Shown here one piece after another: positions 1,298-13,958 of a DNA stretch of 46,684 nucleotides. Below the pieces are notes generated by a model, which did not search any database, was not told the origin of the DNA, and saw only the letters and a program-made list of their open reading frames with translations. A program made the position numbers and the translations under genes. Within the stretch, counting starts at the first letter, position 1. Every line of letters starts with the position of its first letter. The stretch lies in assembly GCA_009869945.1 (NCBI GenBank), contig WIXG01000497.1, positions 1 through 46,684 on the forward strand, written 5' to 3'. This stretch comes from Mesaphorura yosii. Taxonomy: Eukaryota > Arthropoda > Collembola > Poduromorpha > Tullbergiidae.

Positions 1298-1754
1298 CGT
1301 CCGATGTACGGCGCGTGTGACCTCTCTCAAGAACTTGTCATTAATTAAAGTTCATACGTGTATTACTTTGAGACAGACGAGAGAATGTGTCAGAGGTCGC
1401 AGAGATTAAACAAAAATTGACTTGTTGCACACGAAAATTTCAGTGCCTGATTCTATTTTAAGATTTTTTTTTTGCATTAAGGAGGAGGAAGAAGAGTAAG
1501 GTACCAACTCTTGAAAAGCTTTTTCTTGTACAAGTCTTTAATCAATGAACATAGATATAAAAAAAATCTGAATAAATCCAGAATTAATTGACGTACATTG
1601 ATATTTTATTCTTGCATCTAATTATGGCGAGATGTGAAGTTTGTTTAATCTCTGTAACCTCTGACCCATTCTCTCGTCTGTCTCAAAGTAATACACATAT
1701 GAACTTTAATTAATGACAAGTTCTTGAGAGAGGTCACGCGCCGTACATAGGACG
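1298..1754. mobile_element. Foldback (MITE-like) element with ~117-bp inverted arms
   Basis: The stretch 1298-1415 recurs in reverse complement at about 1639-1754. The outer ends start CGTCC(G/T)ATGTACGGCGCGTG and the arms stay nearly identical for about 117 bp, with roughly seven substitutions and one 2-bp gap. About 220 bp of AT-rich sequence separates them and no long ORF is present, so the unit could fold into a long hairpin. This is the structure of a non-autonomous foldback DNA transposon. No target-site duplication could be recognised, so family and exact ends are open. It begins 10 bp beyond the CRE palindrome of the lectin promoter. Confidence 0.75.
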
Positions 1755-5249: not shown

Positions 5250-5732
5250 TACACAATCCGTCACTTCATTACTTCACCACGAACAATTATTCCTTATCTT
5301 ATCGGGGGGCTATGACATGTTAAATTTCTACAATCGACGGCATCATGATGGTGCTTCCTGGGTATGAATGCCAAGCCAAATGAAGGCCGATACGGGTGCT
5401 TGATTATTGCGAACACGAACCTGCATGGAAATTGAAGTGCAAACTGATGGAACTATCAACTGGATTCTAACAATGGACAAAGCAAAGGACTGTGAAATAA
5501 AGAATTGGCAGAGAATAGACATAACGAAAGGCGGTGATTCATAATCTACTGACTTTAGTTCAGCTGAATTGCATCTCTTCTCTACAGAATTTTTGTCCAA
5601 CTGTATAAGACAATACTACATTACACGTAATGAACGGAAAGCATATCTTCCGTAGGAATGCTAACCTAAGCGTGGTAGTATAATAGAGAGAATGGAGAAT
5701 GTGAGGCGGCGCAGGGTCGGAATTTCACGAGG
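5250..5732. other. Gene-free spacer
   Basis: Apart from the 3' end of the preceding gene I see only short, motif-free ORFs. The longest, on the minus strand at 5343-5600, has no recognisable domain. Confidence 0.4.
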
Positions 5733-6190: not shown

Positions 6191-8913
6191 AAATTTATTA
6201 TTCTCCCTCCTAAAAGCGACATTACAAGAACAAAGAATAGGGTTACTTAATATCCGAACTCTTGCTGAACCCATGTCCATGTCTTGCATTTTCTTAAAAT
6301 CAACCGTAATATTTCAGAATAGACGATCATGTAGATAAAATACGGTACGGCACACAACCACCAATTTAATCTGCAAAAAGATTCAAATGAATACACATGA
6401 TCACGAAATGTGCTTTTTAATTGCTCATCGTACTCGATCACTTACTTGACAAACTGCAGTCCAATCGCTGGTGAAAATTCTGGCGTGTATGAAAAGAATA
6501 TCAGAAGTGCAAGTTCGAAACCAATGGCAAGGTACACGACCCAGTTCCTGTGAGAACGTGTTAGGTGTTACTGGTGTTACAATTACCAACTGAACGACCA
6601 ATTAAATGCTAGACTACTAAACTGCTTACGACTTACGAGAATAATTTAGTGAATAATGAGTCTCGTCTGTTCTTTTGTACTAAAACATCGCCTATTTGGG
6701 TAATGACGATGGAAATGAAATACGCTGTCCAGCAGGTTTGCTCCAAGTCTTTTCTGGCGGCATACGTCTGGAAATAAATTGCAATTGTGTGCAATTAAAA
6801 TCGGAGGTTCCCCATATTTATAAAAGTGGCTAATTTAAACAGGAAATTCTACCCATTCTTGGCCGTACGAATCTTCTAGATCATTTATGGCCGAATCTTC
6901 CCAATAGTCGGAAAGTCCCAGCAGTCGATCAGGCAGCCAACCATTTTGCCCCATGACCACGAAATAGGTGAACATTCCGGAAAAGCTCTCAATTACCCCA
7001 ATTTGGCCGTACGCGAAGGACACCAATCTGGACGAGGGCGGCAGCAATTTTGCACATAATTAATCAAGCTGAAATCCTTCGAGATTGTCGTAATTTACCT
7101 CCCAGTCACCAATTTTCCTTCTTTTGGATCTCTAGGCGGTCTTTCCATGAGTCCTCCTTCTGCTTTCTCATACGATAAGGCGATCGTTGGCAAGATGTCT
7201 GTGCCCAAACATACCAAGAGCATGGGAACCGTGCCAAGGGGCAACGGGATCCTGATCAGGATCAATGCCAAGTATGGACTGAGCTCAGCAATATTTGCCG
7301 CCAACAGATATGTGATGCACTTCTTCAAGTTGTCAAAGATTAAACGGCCTTCCTCACAGCCATACACAATCGATGCAAAATTGTCGTCCAGCAGAATCAT
7401 ATCGGCGGCTTGCTTGGAGACATCAGAGCCTGCGATTCCCATTGCGACTCCGATATCAGCCTTCTTGAGTGCCGGGGAATCGTTCACACCGTCGCCAGTG
7501 ACTGCCACGATATGGCCGAGAGTCTGGAATCCTTCGACGATAATCTGCGCGGAAAGCACCCAAGATAAGCGGAAAAGTTCAAAATCGGGCGTCCTTAGTG
7601 GAATTTTTTCAGTTACATTTCTACGGAAGATATGCTTTCCGTTTAATACTTGTAATGCAGTATTTTCTTACGAGCTTCTGCTGGGGTGATACGCGGGCGA
7701 AGACAATCTCCGAATGAGATCTCAGGCAATCGTCAAGTTGTGCCGGGCTCATGTCGATGAGCTCCAGTCCCGTTATCACAGCCGCCTTGCAGTGATGAGG
7801 ATCCACGGCTTCGGGACGTATGCCGAGTCTCCTGGCAACGTCAGAGACTGTTTCGCTGCCTTCGGAAATGATTCCAACTTGCTTCGCAATCGCCTTGGCT
7901 GTGACAGGATGGTCACCAGTGACCATGACCACTTTAATCCCGGCCGTTTTGCATGTCTGCACAGCGGCGGGTACTCCTGCTCGTGGTGGGTCAATCATGG
8001 AAATTAAGCCCACAAATCGCAGGCCGATATCTAGAAAATCTGTGTTCTCAGAGCCGAATTTGAAACCGACGGGATACTGGTCCAGTGGGAGGCGACAGTC
8101 GCAGAATGCAATCACACGCTCGCCCAAGCTGCCAAGTTTCTCGTTGGCCGAAACCACTGCCTTCTCCCAACTCTCATCGAATGTTAGATCTTCAGGTCCA
8201 ATCTTGATTGTCTTGCAGTAGTCTGCAATGCGCTCAGGGGCTCCCTGAAATCGCACAAGGCATTTTAATTTAACCAATTAGCAATTTCGGCCAAGATCAT
8301 TCACCTTCATCACCAGAAGATATCTGGGATCCGCCGGATCTCGCATGTCGTGAATAGAAACTTGATATTTATGCACAGAGTTGAATGGAATTTCAAATAC
8401 TTTCGGATGTTTGCTCTGAAAATTTTCTATATTTCCAATGATTGCCTCCATGCAACGTAGAATCGCTGATTCGGATGCGTCGCCATTAACTTTTCTGTCA
8501 TAGTCATGGCCATAGTCATCGATCATTAAACTAAACTGCAGACTCGTCTATATCTATATCGACTCGAACCTGGTTTACCTTATCGCAATTGGGACATCTT
8601 TCTGCTCAGCCATGAACTTGGCTCTGCTGCAAAGGCTCGCCGCGATGCCCAGCGCCTCAAATCCGGGGACGTTATTATTATTCACGGCGTCCCCCATTTC
8701 GTGAACCTGGTTGTCCACCCACACGTGCGCCACCGACATTTTGTTTTGCGTGAGCGTCCCGGTCTTGTCTGAGCAGATTACTGAGCATGACCCTAACGTT
8801 TCGACAGCATGCAGATTCTTCACAAGGCAATTCCTGTCCGCCATTTTCTTGGCTGTCAGAGCCAGTACCACTGTGAACGACACAATGATTCCTTCTGGGA
8901 CGTTGGCGACAAT

Positions 8914-8936
8914 AGGCACTTTCGTTTACTTTGAGT
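8914..8936 (+). repeat. Left terminal inverted repeat of the Harbinger element
   Basis: A 23-bp repeat starting AGGCACTTTCG and preceded by the AAT duplication. It differs from the right end at one position (A against T, position 15). Confidence 0.88.
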
Positions 8937-9099
8937 CGTCCTCAACTTCTGTATCTCATGAAACAATTGAGGTGAGCTAAGTGGCGAAGAAAACGAACGG
9001 ACCAATCTCTTATTTGAAAAATTTAAAGTTTAGAGTGCGCGTTTTGATCTGCCGCAGATTACTCTGATTATGTTTTGCTGTTGTGCAAGCTAATTAAAA

Positions 9100-10620
9100 A
9101 TGGATGCAGGCAAATTTAATCGAAAGCGCGTGAGGCCAAACAAGCATGAAGTGTTAAGAAACCGTGTCATCACGAGAGCAAAAGTGCTTCTGTTTCTGGA
9201 ATTCGGCGATCCTGATCTCGAAGATGACATCCTGACTGAAACAATCATATACCGGCGCATTATCAATCGATATCGATACCTTCGACCCCCAAATAAAATA
9301 CCAAAGTGCAATTCGTGGTTCTCTAATGTTCTACCAAACTACACTGATCAAAGGTATGCTTTCATTTAGACACCCACAATTTATGACTATTGAATTCGAT
9401 CCGATTTTCTGACAGATTTCGAACTGTGTTCCGGATGAGCCAGAATTCGTTCTTGGAAATGCTGCAAATGATTGAAATGGATCCTGTATTTGAGTGGAAG
9501 TACAGGTGCTTACATTGTCAGTTTCTGGGTTACTTGTAAGTCATAATCAAATGATGTCCTGATGTCATTAGGCCGCAAATACCGGTTGTAATTCAGATGG
9601 CCGTCGCTTTGTCGCGATTCGGACATTTTGGAAACATGGCTTCGTATTTCCATATCGCTCGAGACTTTGGAATATCCGACCATGGAACTGTTCAAGAGTG
9701 CACGAGAAGAGTAATTTCAGCATTACTCAACATCAAAAATACAATTACATGGCCACATTCTGAAGAACGTGCCTCGATCTCCGAATTAATGGCGCATCAA
9801 GGTTAACCAAGATTTATTGCTAAATGTGCCCAACTTAACACTTCTCCGGATTACAGGCTTCAAACATTGTGTTGGATTTGTCGACGGATCCCACGTTCGG
9901 CTTGAAAACTGTCCCTTAGACGATTCGAAGTCCTACTACAACCGGAAATGTTTCAATTCGATCCAAGTACAAGTAATCTGCAATCCAGCTAAAAGAATAA
10001 TTCATGCGGTTGTCGGCTACCCAGGCGCTGTCCACGACTCGAAGGTGTTTCGAGAATGTTCAGTTTCCAAACACCCTGGCACGTACTTTTCCAAACACCA
10101 GTTCATTTTGGGAGACGCTGGTTACAAGTTACAGTCAAATCTAATTACACCCTTCAAACGAACCGGTAGGTCAGAAACAAACCAATAAACAATTTATTAT
10201 CAGAATTTTATTTCAGGAACTTTGTTGGCTTACCAAGAAAAGTTTAACAAGGCTCTCTCACACTCTCGCGTTGCTGTTGAACACACATTTGGGGTACTTA
10301 AAAGTAGGTTCCAGAGCTTGAATGGTCTCAGGATTCAAGTAAGTAAGTAAAACATATTTACAAACAGATAACACAATGACCTTGAAAGTTATGTACAGGT
10401 TAGCAGATCAGTGGGACATAAACGTGCTTGTGACTGGATTCAGTGCACATTAATTCTTTACAATCTTCTGTTGGACTCAGATTCATGGACAATCGATGAC
10501 ATGTCACATGATTTCGACGCACCCGAGCCTGATGCTGCCTCTGAAGAAGATCCTGGTGCTGACGCAGATGGAATAGCTAAAAGAGAAATATTAGCACGTT
10601 ATTTGTCTGAGCTGGGTTAG
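9100..10620 (+). CDS. Harbinger transposase (DDE_Tnp_4), 408 aa
   Basis: Six exons: 9100..9353, 9416..9505, 9572..9801, 9857..10165, 10217..10338 and 10399..10620, joined by introns of 51-66 bp with GT-AG ends and consistent phases. The N-terminal half contains the helix-turn-helix region typical of the family. The C-terminal nuclease core keeps the acidic residues: Asp201 in FVDGSH, Asp278 in LGDAGY and Glu316 in AVEHTFGVLK; PGAVHDSKVF is also conserved. The enzyme cuts and pastes the element at its terminal repeats, usually with help from the Myb-like partner. A poly(A) signal AATAAA lies at 10726-10731. No frame break is visible, so it is probably functional. Confidence 0.88.
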
Positions 10621-10764
10621 CTTTGTAGATCTTGACCCACTACTTACCATGGAAAATTCCGCACACTTGCATAAGTCGTTGTCCATATGACAAATCCGGT
10701 TCTCTGTTATAAAAGTATGAAATCAAATAAAGCCCTCGTGGATTAATATGTATCTAAATTCTAC

Positions 10765-11842
10765 TCACTTTCCCATCTTCAGGAGCTCAAGGTCTCGTCT
10801 TTCTTGCATTTCCATGACTTTAATCATCAAGCGATTTCTCTCTGTTTCTTCAAATTGACTTTTCTGAATGCCCAGTTGATCTCGTTGGATTTGCAACTTA
10901 CTTTCTTCAATTGATAATTGCATGTCGCGGTGTTCCTTTTCTTGATTTAAGCGCTTCTCTTCAACTTCGACCTTCTTATTCATAAAGAAATCAAGGTCAT
11001 CAAGGGATGTCGCGATATTCTTGCGCTTTGATCCACCTGGTTTATTCAGTGTGCGGCGAAATGAAGCGGCAGATTCACTGAGGACAGACGGCGGCGTTTG
11101 TCGTCTCGAGGTTTCCTTTTCAGGTACATTTTCCGGTTCCCCTTCACCAATTAAGTCAATTTGAATGACATTTTCTTCTGGGCTAAGTATTTCAAAGTCT
11201 GCATGTGTTCCATCCTCAGCAAAGTCAACAGGAACATTCTCGAGCTGGTTCCCACCTTTATTAACCATGAATCCACTGTCATAAACAATTGGTGGATTGA
11301 TGTCATTTCTTGTTCCCCAAACTTCCTCCAGTATTTTGAATTGTGGGCAGTGCTTTTTCAAGAATGCTGTTATGAATAGAAGACATGAGTGATTTGGTTC
11401 CATGCCAACATGATAGCTGAGCAATTGACGGTACATACCTTCGATTGAACGTGGATCGGTTTCCTGTAAGCCGCTGCCAGTTTTGTCCAACCACTCATTG
11501 ACAAATTTGTACTTAATTTCCAGTTTCTCGTAGCAATTTCTTATCTGTTTGTATGTGCAGGCAAATCCAAGTTGGGCTCGCATTTTCTCTATGAAATTCT
11601 TGATGTCCTTTCTCTGTGGACAAAATGATTTTTAAATTGTCTTAGTCGGCTCATATCTACGAAAACTTTTAAAGCAGATTAAGATAGCTTACGTCATATT
11701 TGCCTTCCTTATGAGCCTCCAGAATGTATTCCGCAATCTTGGTCTTCTCGGTTTCAGTCCACCTTTTTCGTTTTGCATCGTCTTTATCAATATTAACTTC
11801 ACTTGCCTGCATCTTTCTTACTTTTGCAGTTTTCGGACCCAT
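10765..11842 (-). CDS. Harbinger Myb/SANT-like DNA-binding protein, 332 aa
   Basis: Two exons, 11693..11842 and 10765..11613, joined in phase 0 through a 79-bp intron. Residues 25-110 carry a trihelix Myb/SANT-like domain (RKRWTETEKTKIAEYI, then a FIEKMRAQLGFACTYKQIRN helix). A Ser/Thr/Pro-rich linker and a basic KRKN stretch follow, and the last 80 residues form a strongly charged coiled coil (EVEEKRLNQEKEHRDMQLS). In Harbinger elements the second protein binds the transposon ends and brings the transposase into the nucleus. It is convergent with the transposase gene and 144 bp away from it. The assignment rests on position and domain type. Confidence 0.8.
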
Positions 11843-12566
11843 TTTTACAAATTAATTTAAAAGAAACTGGTCTTGAAATCTTAATGCCGTTTAGTTTGAG
11901 CTTTACTGAAAACTGAGCAAAATTAAATGAAATCCAAACCGAACCACAGTAAGCGAAATACTTGTGCATTCTCCATTACAAGCCACACAAATTCCGGACT
12001 TAGAAAAAAATTTCGCCAGAATTATTTACAAACTTTGTGATTATATTTCTCCCGTCTCCTGTAGAATAGCAGGCTAGGTTTTGGTACTCTGGTATATTGG
12101 ACCAGGCTCTACCAGAAACACCAAAGTCTGGCGGCTACTTTTGCAGGAGCGCCGAGAAACGGACCCCCCAAAATCAGGCGTCAGCCATTTTGGGGGGCGA
12201 GGTTCTATGATGACCCCACCCAAATGAGGTGTCGTTGGAAAGCTCATGACAGTGGCTCTCCAACGCAACAAACCTCAGGCTCCTGCGTCAATTTGTTGGC
12301 GCGTAATAGCCGGTCAAAGGTCACGCCTTCCCATATGCAAACACAAGGAGTGCACTAGTAATGTGGTACTTCGCTCACTGTACGAACCCTGATAGGGGAG
12401 CGGAGCACGAAACCAGATATGTCGTGCACTTGGGTAGAAAGAGGCAAAGAAGTACCTCGGTAGGTCCTCTTTCCTCATTTCCCCCCTCATTCGGTTCGAC
12501 CAATCACAGCGCGAGAAAAATGAGGTGGTTTGAGGCGCGGAAAGAGTTGAGGAGAAAGAGGTGAAA

Positions 12567-12589
12567 ACTCAAAGAAAACGAAAGTGCCT
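12567..12589 (-). repeat. Right terminal inverted repeat of the Harbinger element
   Basis: Reverse complement of the left repeat with one mismatch. It ends CGAAAGTGCCT and is followed by AAT and the pump exon. Confidence 0.88.
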
Positions 12590-13958
12590 AATGATCCCAA
12601 TGACAAACAAAATTGAGTCCAGGATCGAGTAGCCCATTGTCTGTGCGACGATGAAGAAGACTGCTCCAAAGAACGAGCCGAAGCCGCAGAGCAATTTGAC
12701 GAAATGAGTCACTTCACGGGATAATGGAGTGTCGATCGTCTGGACGCCCGATGTGAGGCCAGCTATGCGGCCAATGAAGGCGTGGTTTCCCGTACTGACG
12801 ACGAGACCGCGTGCGGTTCCTGCACGCGCAAATATTGGAAATTAGTCGAGGAATTGGACGTCAATTGGACGATCTTGTAAATAAAGTTACCTTCAAGGGC
12901 ATACGATGAGAAGAAGGCAAGATTTTTGGTCTCCAACGGATTTTCATTCGTCGATTCCACAGTTCTTTCCTGCGGATTGGATTCCCCGGTTAATGATGAA
13001 TTGTCGACCTTGAAATCTTGACATTCGATAATTCGTATGTCCGCCGGGATTCGATCGCCGAATTTAATCTGTTCAGCAAAGAAGACATCGGTTTTAGATA
13101 ACGATACCTTTGCACCGCGCCAATTAACTCACATCAACGATATCACCAACAACCAACTCATTAGTATTCACACTATAAATCTGCTCATCTTTTATGACTC
13201 TGGCGTACGTCGGCACCATTTTTGTGAATGACTCCATAATTTTGTCCGTGCTGTACTCTTGGTAGAATGTGAAGAGCCCGAGGATTAGCACGAGGCCAGA
13301 AAGGATGAACCCAAGGTACAACTGCAAAATCAAGCACAAATTTAGACGTTTCGTGATTTGTAGAGTTGAAATTTTGAATTGGTACATTGTCGAAGGGTGC
13401 GTCGCCTTCGACGACTTGGAAAAGGTATGCTGCAAAGCACAGAATCGCTCCAGCCCACAAGAGCAGTTGAATCCCACCGATGAGTGTCTTGGCGAATTTG
13501 ACCAGCAGGCTCGGCTTGGGGGGAGGTGTAAGAATATTCGTGCCGTAGACCTCAACATTCTTCACCCGCTGACTTTCTCCAAGCCCTCGCACCGGATCAG
13601 TACCGAACCGATTGTACAGGGTGGCAATTGGCACTGTATGGTAATCAACTTCCAATTCCTTCCTCAAGTACGTCAGCGAATGGCGACGGACAAGGTGGCT
13701 CTGCCCTACGTTTACGGGTTTAAATTCTTTGACTTTGGGTCCCACAGATTCGCTTTTCCAAACCGTGCCAGCAGCCTGCAATTCAGTCTCAACTCAGTCA
13801 GCAGACCGAAATAGCCCTGTCAGTACCAAGTAACTTACGTCGAATCCAATTTGACTCGTTTCGGACAACCTTCTTGACGAAATCATCGTCACGGGGTCCG
13901 GATCCGAAGGCGGGAAGGGAGTACTCGTCGAGAACCAATCTCTTTGCTTGATTGCCAT

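What the first reader, a model, noticed from the sequence alone, without database searches (positions are those of the whole stretch)
8911..12592. Harbinger transposon inserted inside a coding exon of an otherwise intact Na+/K+-ATPase-like gene
Seen: 23-bp inverted ends and AAT on both flanks. The pump reading frame stops at an Ile codon (ATT) on one side and resumes on the other at Val-Ala-Asn-Val-Pro-Glu-Gly, so removing the element plus one AAT gives back an exon with correct phases to both neighbours. Known: VANVPEG is an invariant M4 motif of P2-type pumps and Harbinger makes 3-bp duplications. Inference: a very recent, possibly heterozygous or somatically excisable insertion into an important gene. 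As it stands the protein would end after 375 residues, before the phosphorylated Asp.
Basis: partly seen in the sequence, partly recalled or inferred. Interest (0 to 1): 0.88.

Follow-up and report, generated by a model that had tools for sequence, protein, structure and literature searches.

The report
Harbinger transposon interrupting springtail pump gene
A complete, possibly mobile DNA transposon sits inside an otherwise intact ion-pump gene of a springtail-like animal and breaks it as it stands, but the gene is a fast-evolving extra copy, so this looks like a clear but ordinary event.

Summary
A 3,676-bp PIF/Harbinger-type element (8914-12589) has 23-bp inverted ends (22 of 23 match) and an AAT duplication, and splits exon 5 of a P-type pump gene on the minus strand. 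Without it and one ATT, 12 exons give 1,059 residues with no internal stop and GT-AG at 11 of 11 introns. As it stands, translation stops after 375 residues. A paralogue has this exon uninterrupted, so the insertion is derived. The element has an intact transposase and an intact second ORF; its end pattern matched only its own two ends in the 93-Mb assembly. No credible splice pair would remove it.

'Important gene' is weakened. The gene belongs to a springtail-type side branch of Na+/K+-ATPase alpha with Cys for the M6 Asp, has a 3.4-fold longer branch than its sister copy, and the genome also holds a near-canonical alpha locus and four other alpha-like loci. Heterozygosity and excision cannot be judged: the assembly showed no empty allele. 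Recency rests on the absence of lesions (at most about 1-2% neutral divergence). New member of a known kind; modest interest.

The parts
8911..8913 (.). Target-site duplication AAT, left copy
8914..12589 (+). PIF/Harbinger-type element, 3,676 bp
   Evidence: ends and duplication; proteins
8914..8936 (+). Left terminal inverted repeat (23 bp)
12567..12589 (-). Right terminal inverted repeat (22 of 23 match)
12590..12592 (.). Target-site duplication AAT, right copy
9100..10620 (+). Transposase gene, 6 exons (9100-9353, 9416-9505, 9572-9801, 9857-10165, 10217-10338, 10399-10620), 408 aa, intact
   Evidence: DDE_Tnp_4 E 4.4e-36
10765..11842 (-). Second ORF, putative Myb/SANT-like protein, 2 exons (11842-11693, 11613-10765), 332 aa, intact
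   Evidence: only a sub-cut-off Pfam match
11996..12341 (.). Stretch of the element that resembles a dispersed repeat of this genome
   Evidence: 35 other matches listed; alignment
12590..12819 (-). Pump exon 5, upstream half (ends ...FVIGII)
8579..8910 (-). Pump exon 5, downstream half (starts VANVPEG)
12891..13958 (-). Pump exons 1-4 (13958-13839, 13775-13386, 13321-13133, 13068-12891)
6247..8494 (-). Pump exons 6-12 (8494-8305, 8244-7672, 7544-7099, 7027-6853, 6767-6637, 6547-6446, 6370-6247)

Best explanation
An apparently autonomous PIF/Harbinger-type DNA transposon (transposase plus a second, putative Myb/SANT-like protein on the other strand) inserted by cut-and-paste at an AAT/ATT trinucleotide inside exon 5 of a Na+/K+-ATPase alpha-like paralogue and duplicated those 3 bp. 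SHOWN: the ends, the duplication, two intact ORFs, the uninterrupted exon in a paralogue, the intact remainder of the gene, the stop after residue 375. INFERRED: this allele makes no working pump (it ends in M4, before the phosphorylation site); the insertion is young; it was tolerated because the gene is a divergent paralogue beside a near-canonical alpha locus, or because an intact allele survives in the population; if the transposase is active, precise excision with one copy of the duplication would restore the frame, as reported for mPing.
For: Ends and duplication. Joined frame and splice sites; stop after 375. Transposase of 408 aa open across six exons with the blocks DGSH, GDAGY and VEHTFG and the whole DDE_Tnp_4 profile at E 4.4e-36; 2 of 6 database relatives are named HARBI1. 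Second ORF of 332 aa. Uninterrupted exon in the C109 copy and the same motif uninterrupted in the C194 copy. Related elements of the same genome: 4 of 4 with assignable ends begin AG, end CT and are flanked by AAT (L043, L047, L048) or ATT (L046); of the 6 loci fetched, L044 gave no assignable ends and L045 was not examined. Alpha-like loci, tree. Precise excision of PIF/Pong/Harbinger elements: abstract of PMC4561436, passages of PMC2836001.
Against: No evidence on expression, allele frequency or excision was available. 'Young' rests on absence of lesions and on assumed indel rates. The second ORF reaches only E 0.0036 against one Pfam DNA-binding profile, below its cut-off, so its Myb/SANT nature is not proved. 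A dispersed repeat inside the element suits a long-resident element as well as a new one.
Confidence: 0.88

Rival explanations
1. The element is removed from the mRNA as an intron, so the gene still makes a pump.
For: In-frame, stop-free GT/AG pairs exist: four, all with donor 12579. The one that keeps VANVPEG (acceptor 8918) would add six residues, RHFLPI, inside M4. One of the four uses an acceptor of ordinary strength (8870, score 6.5).
Against: Donor 12579 scores -4.2 where the 16 accepted donors score 2.2 to 10.3; acceptor 8918 scores -3.5 where the 16 accepted acceptors score 2.4 to 13.1; the other three pairs lose VANVPEG. No GT-AG pair removes the element exactly. The matrix was trained on introns that I called myself, and only 12700-12540 and 8990-8860 were scanned.
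Confidence: 0.04
2. Contig misjoin: the element belongs elsewhere and the assembly joined it into the gene.
For: No reads were available to check the junctions.
Against: Both junctions carry the same AAT next to matching ends, and the reading frame resumes exactly; the element matches nowhere else in full.
Confidence: 0.02
3. The gene was already losing its function when the element landed; the insertion is a late mark on a dying paralogue.
For: 41 of 430 otherwise invariant sites changed, against 9 of 398 in the C109 copy; end branch 0.51 against 0.15.
Against: No stop, frameshift or broken splice site in 12 exons, and the motifs TGES, DKTGT and GDGVND are kept. The Folsomia alpha-B protein, which is annotated as a gene, shows as many such changes (51 of 440) and a longer branch (0.81), so fast change need not mean decay.
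Confidence: 0.3

Closest known systems
PIF/Harbinger superfamily (animal HARBI1-type elements; rice Ping/Pong/mPing)
   Same: DDE transposase, second ORF, short inverted ends, 3-bp duplication (general description in passages of PMC9179366, and PMC9710019).
   Different: The duplication is AAT/ATT and not TAA/TTA; 'TWA, AT or AWT' is listed for PIF/Harbinger in a table of PMC9033116 (passage). Single copy in this assembly.
Na+/K+-ATPase alpha, springtail side branch (Orchesella P0008/P0009; Folsomia 'alpha-B' P0095)
   Same: The joined protein groups with this branch and shares ANIAEL in M5 and Cys in the M6 motif with Orchesella.
   Different: Interrupted by the element; long branch (0.51); the tree program calls the window row and P0095 long rows of unsure place.

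Membership tests
PIF/Harbinger | DDE transposase of the DDE_Tnp_4 type | tested here: met
   E 4.4e-36 over profile positions 1-158 of 158
PIF/Harbinger | Second ORF with a Myb/SANT-like domain | tested here: inconclusive
   Intact 332-aa ORF; its 6 matches outside the element include 5 beside transposase matches; Pfam match E 0.0036, 18.4 bits against a cut-off of 29.5 (with a query that carried one extra residue)
PIF/Harbinger | Terminal inverted repeats and a 3-bp target duplication | tested here: met
   22 of 23 and AAT/AAT
PIF/Harbinger | Mobility (excision and insertion) | not testable with these tools
   Needs a transposition assay or population data
Na+/K+-ATPase alpha (P2C) | Sequence relation to Na+/K+-ATPase alpha over the whole length | tested here: met
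   Best solved structures are Na+/K+-ATPase alpha subunits, residues 71-1073 of the uncorrected 1,075-aa model
Na+/K+-ATPase alpha (P2C) | Canonical M5/M6 cation-site motifs (NIPE, IDLGTD) | tested here: not met
   NIAE and VCLGTD; hence 'Na+/K+-ATPase alpha-like', and the ions carried are not known

The most novel reading that the evidence does not exclude
The element is a newly arrived (possibly horizontally acquired), still active single-copy Harbinger, and its precise excision makes this pump gene a reversible allele, so that individuals or tissues are mosaics of broken and restored copies.
Probability: 0.1. Interest if true: 0.6.

Novelty: new member of a known kind. Interest (0 to 1): 0.3.

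Why it matters
It is a clean natural-knockout candidate with a defined empty site, so one PCR could show whether an animal Harbinger is active and excises precisely. It also points to a springtail side branch of Na+/K+-ATPase alpha in which the M6 Asp is replaced. As biology it is an ordinary class II insertion in a divergent paralogue.

Tried and rejected
Empty site or second haplotype: both flanks were searched in the own genome; each gave 3 matches, the locus itself and the C109 and C194 paralogues (77% and 69% for the downstream flank, 65% and 70% for the upstream flank). Element as an intron: no credible pair. Domesticated transposase: put aside because ends and duplication are present. 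Structured RNA: no Rfam match up to E 1 in 8800-12700. dN/dS against C109: dS is saturated (NG86 returned -1; YN00 failed), so none is given. First pump model (1,075 aa) was wrong at two splice sites and corrected with the paralogue; searches used the uncorrected model. The second ORF as typed had one residue too many (333 for 332), found. Papers: narrow word searches for Harbinger in Collembola and for such an insertion and for springtail Na,K-ATPase copies listed no paper whose title or abstract start is about these; I read no paper in full.

Full report
What is there. The window is contig C497 (46,684 bases) of a 93.0-Mb, 1,127-contig assembly. In the protein search with the pump (7,985 proteins at E up to 0.001, 120 listed) the first row is a partial record labelled Camelus (50% identity); the next two are springtails, Orchesella dallaii and O. 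cincta, at 61% and 60%. I therefore call the animal springtail-like; the species is not known to me. The element is 8914-12589, 3,676 bp, ends matching at 22 of 23 positions, AAT on both sides.

The pump. On the minus strand 12 exons between 13958 and 6247 give 1,059 residues once the element and one ATT are left out, with GT-AG at 11 of 11 introns and no internal stop. TGES, DKTGT, GDGVND and VANVPEG are present in that protein. As it stands translation runs six residues into the element and stops after 375, before the Asp that would be residue 417.

Ancestral state. The paralogue on C109 has the same exon as one 574-base exon reading [13 protein letters not shown], and its 15-exon model is open over 1,062 residues. 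The C194 copy reads FVVGIVVANVPEG without a break. The interruption is therefore a derived insertion, not an old intron.

How important is the gene. The Folsomia alpha protein P0029 gave 74 matches of 74 candidates, 46 of them scored in full by the tool's note. Matches in several pieces fall at C13 (apart from one 40% piece about 3 kb or more away, pieces of 68-99%; residues 1-106, 182-223 and 775-821 unmatched), C23 (55-85%), C816 (47-72%), C194, C109 and this locus; weaker ones belong to other P-type ATPases. C13 is near-canonical; I did not build its gene model or check that it is intact. In a 12-row tree the window gene and C109 group (100/100) and lie with Orchesella P0008/P0009 and Folsomia 'alpha-B' P0095, apart from the canonical alphas; the root is a midpoint for drawing only, and the program flags the window row and P0095 as long rows of unsure place. 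End branches: window 0.51, C109 0.15, P0095 0.81. Sites changed where the other seven of eight sequences agree: window 41 of 430, C109 9 of 398, P0095 51 of 440, the other five 1 to 5 of 390-394; sister pairs in the set keep some of these low. The M6 motif LCIDLGTD of canonical alphas is LLVCLGTD here, with Cys also in C109 and Orchesella and Val in P0095; M5 SNIPEI is ANIAEL. That this M6 Asp (D804 in pig numbering) binds Na+ and K+ is recalled, not looked up.

The transposon. Transposase: 408 aa in six exons on the plus strand, 9100-10620; DDE_Tnp_4 E 4.4e-36. Database relatives: 6 at E up to 0.001 among 1,587 candidates; the two best, at 35% identity, are from the fungi Powellomyces and Puccinia; two are named HARBI1. 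Second ORF: 332 aa on the minus strand, 11842-10765, two exons; six matches outside the element, five of them beside transposase matches; Pfam gives only a sub-cut-off DNA-binding match. In the own genome 36 transposase matches were listed, five of them this element's own; the best other is 47% (C71). The end pattern with up to 3 mismatches matched once on each strand in the whole assembly, both here and both exact; the control, the pattern read backwards, also scored once on each strand, so a lone hit would have meant little. With the DNA search, in which only a repeat-like part matched elsewhere, the family looks single-copy in this assembly; these searches give lower bounds.

Target site. 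Four related elements with assignable ends begin AG, end CT, and are flanked by AAT (L043, L047, L048) or ATT (L046). A table in PMC9033116 lists 'TWA, AT or AWT' for PIF/Harbinger (passage), so this target is not new.

Age and origin. With no lesion in 3,177 coding bases the 95% upper bound on neutral divergence since insertion is 2.3% counting nonsense only, 1.3% or 0.9% if indels run at a twentieth or a tenth of substitutions; these ratios are assumed. Single copy and distant relatives would suit a recent arrival; but 11996-12341 resembles a dispersed repeat of this genome (35 other matches listed, 67-89% identity over 46-324 bases, alignment), which speaks for residence in this lineage.

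Excision and splicing. [quoted passage not shown] passages of PMC2836001). That would restore this exon; nothing here shows that it happens. Splicing out the element is not credible: all four in-frame, stop-free pairs need a donor that scores -4.2, against 2.2 to 10.3 for 16 accepted donors.

Verdict. 'Important gene' does not hold as put; heterozygosity and somatic excision remain untested.

Noticed in passing
window 11996-12341; L002-L008: A stretch inside the element resembles a dispersed repeat of this genome (35 other matches listed) with a shared GGGGTTCTATGATGACCCCACCCAAATGA core in several copies; no Rfam match.
   Followed up: partly
window 7220-7197 (minus strand); C109, C194; P0008, P0009, P0095: A springtail-type side branch of Na+/K+-ATPase alpha has Cys or Val in place of the M6 Asp of IDLGTD.
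   Followed up: partly
window 5606-5660 and 7616-7670: A 55-base inverted repeat, 89% complementary; one arm lies in a pump intron, the other beyond the gene's 3' end.
   Followed up: no
window 1298-1414 and 1640-1754: A 117-base inverted repeat, 94% identical, about 225 bases apart; looks like a small foldback element.
   Followed up: no
L009 neighbourhood: contigs C13, C23, C816, C194, C109, C497: Six Na+/K+-ATPase alpha-like loci in one 93-Mb genome, more than I would expect from memory for a hexapod.
   Followed up: partly
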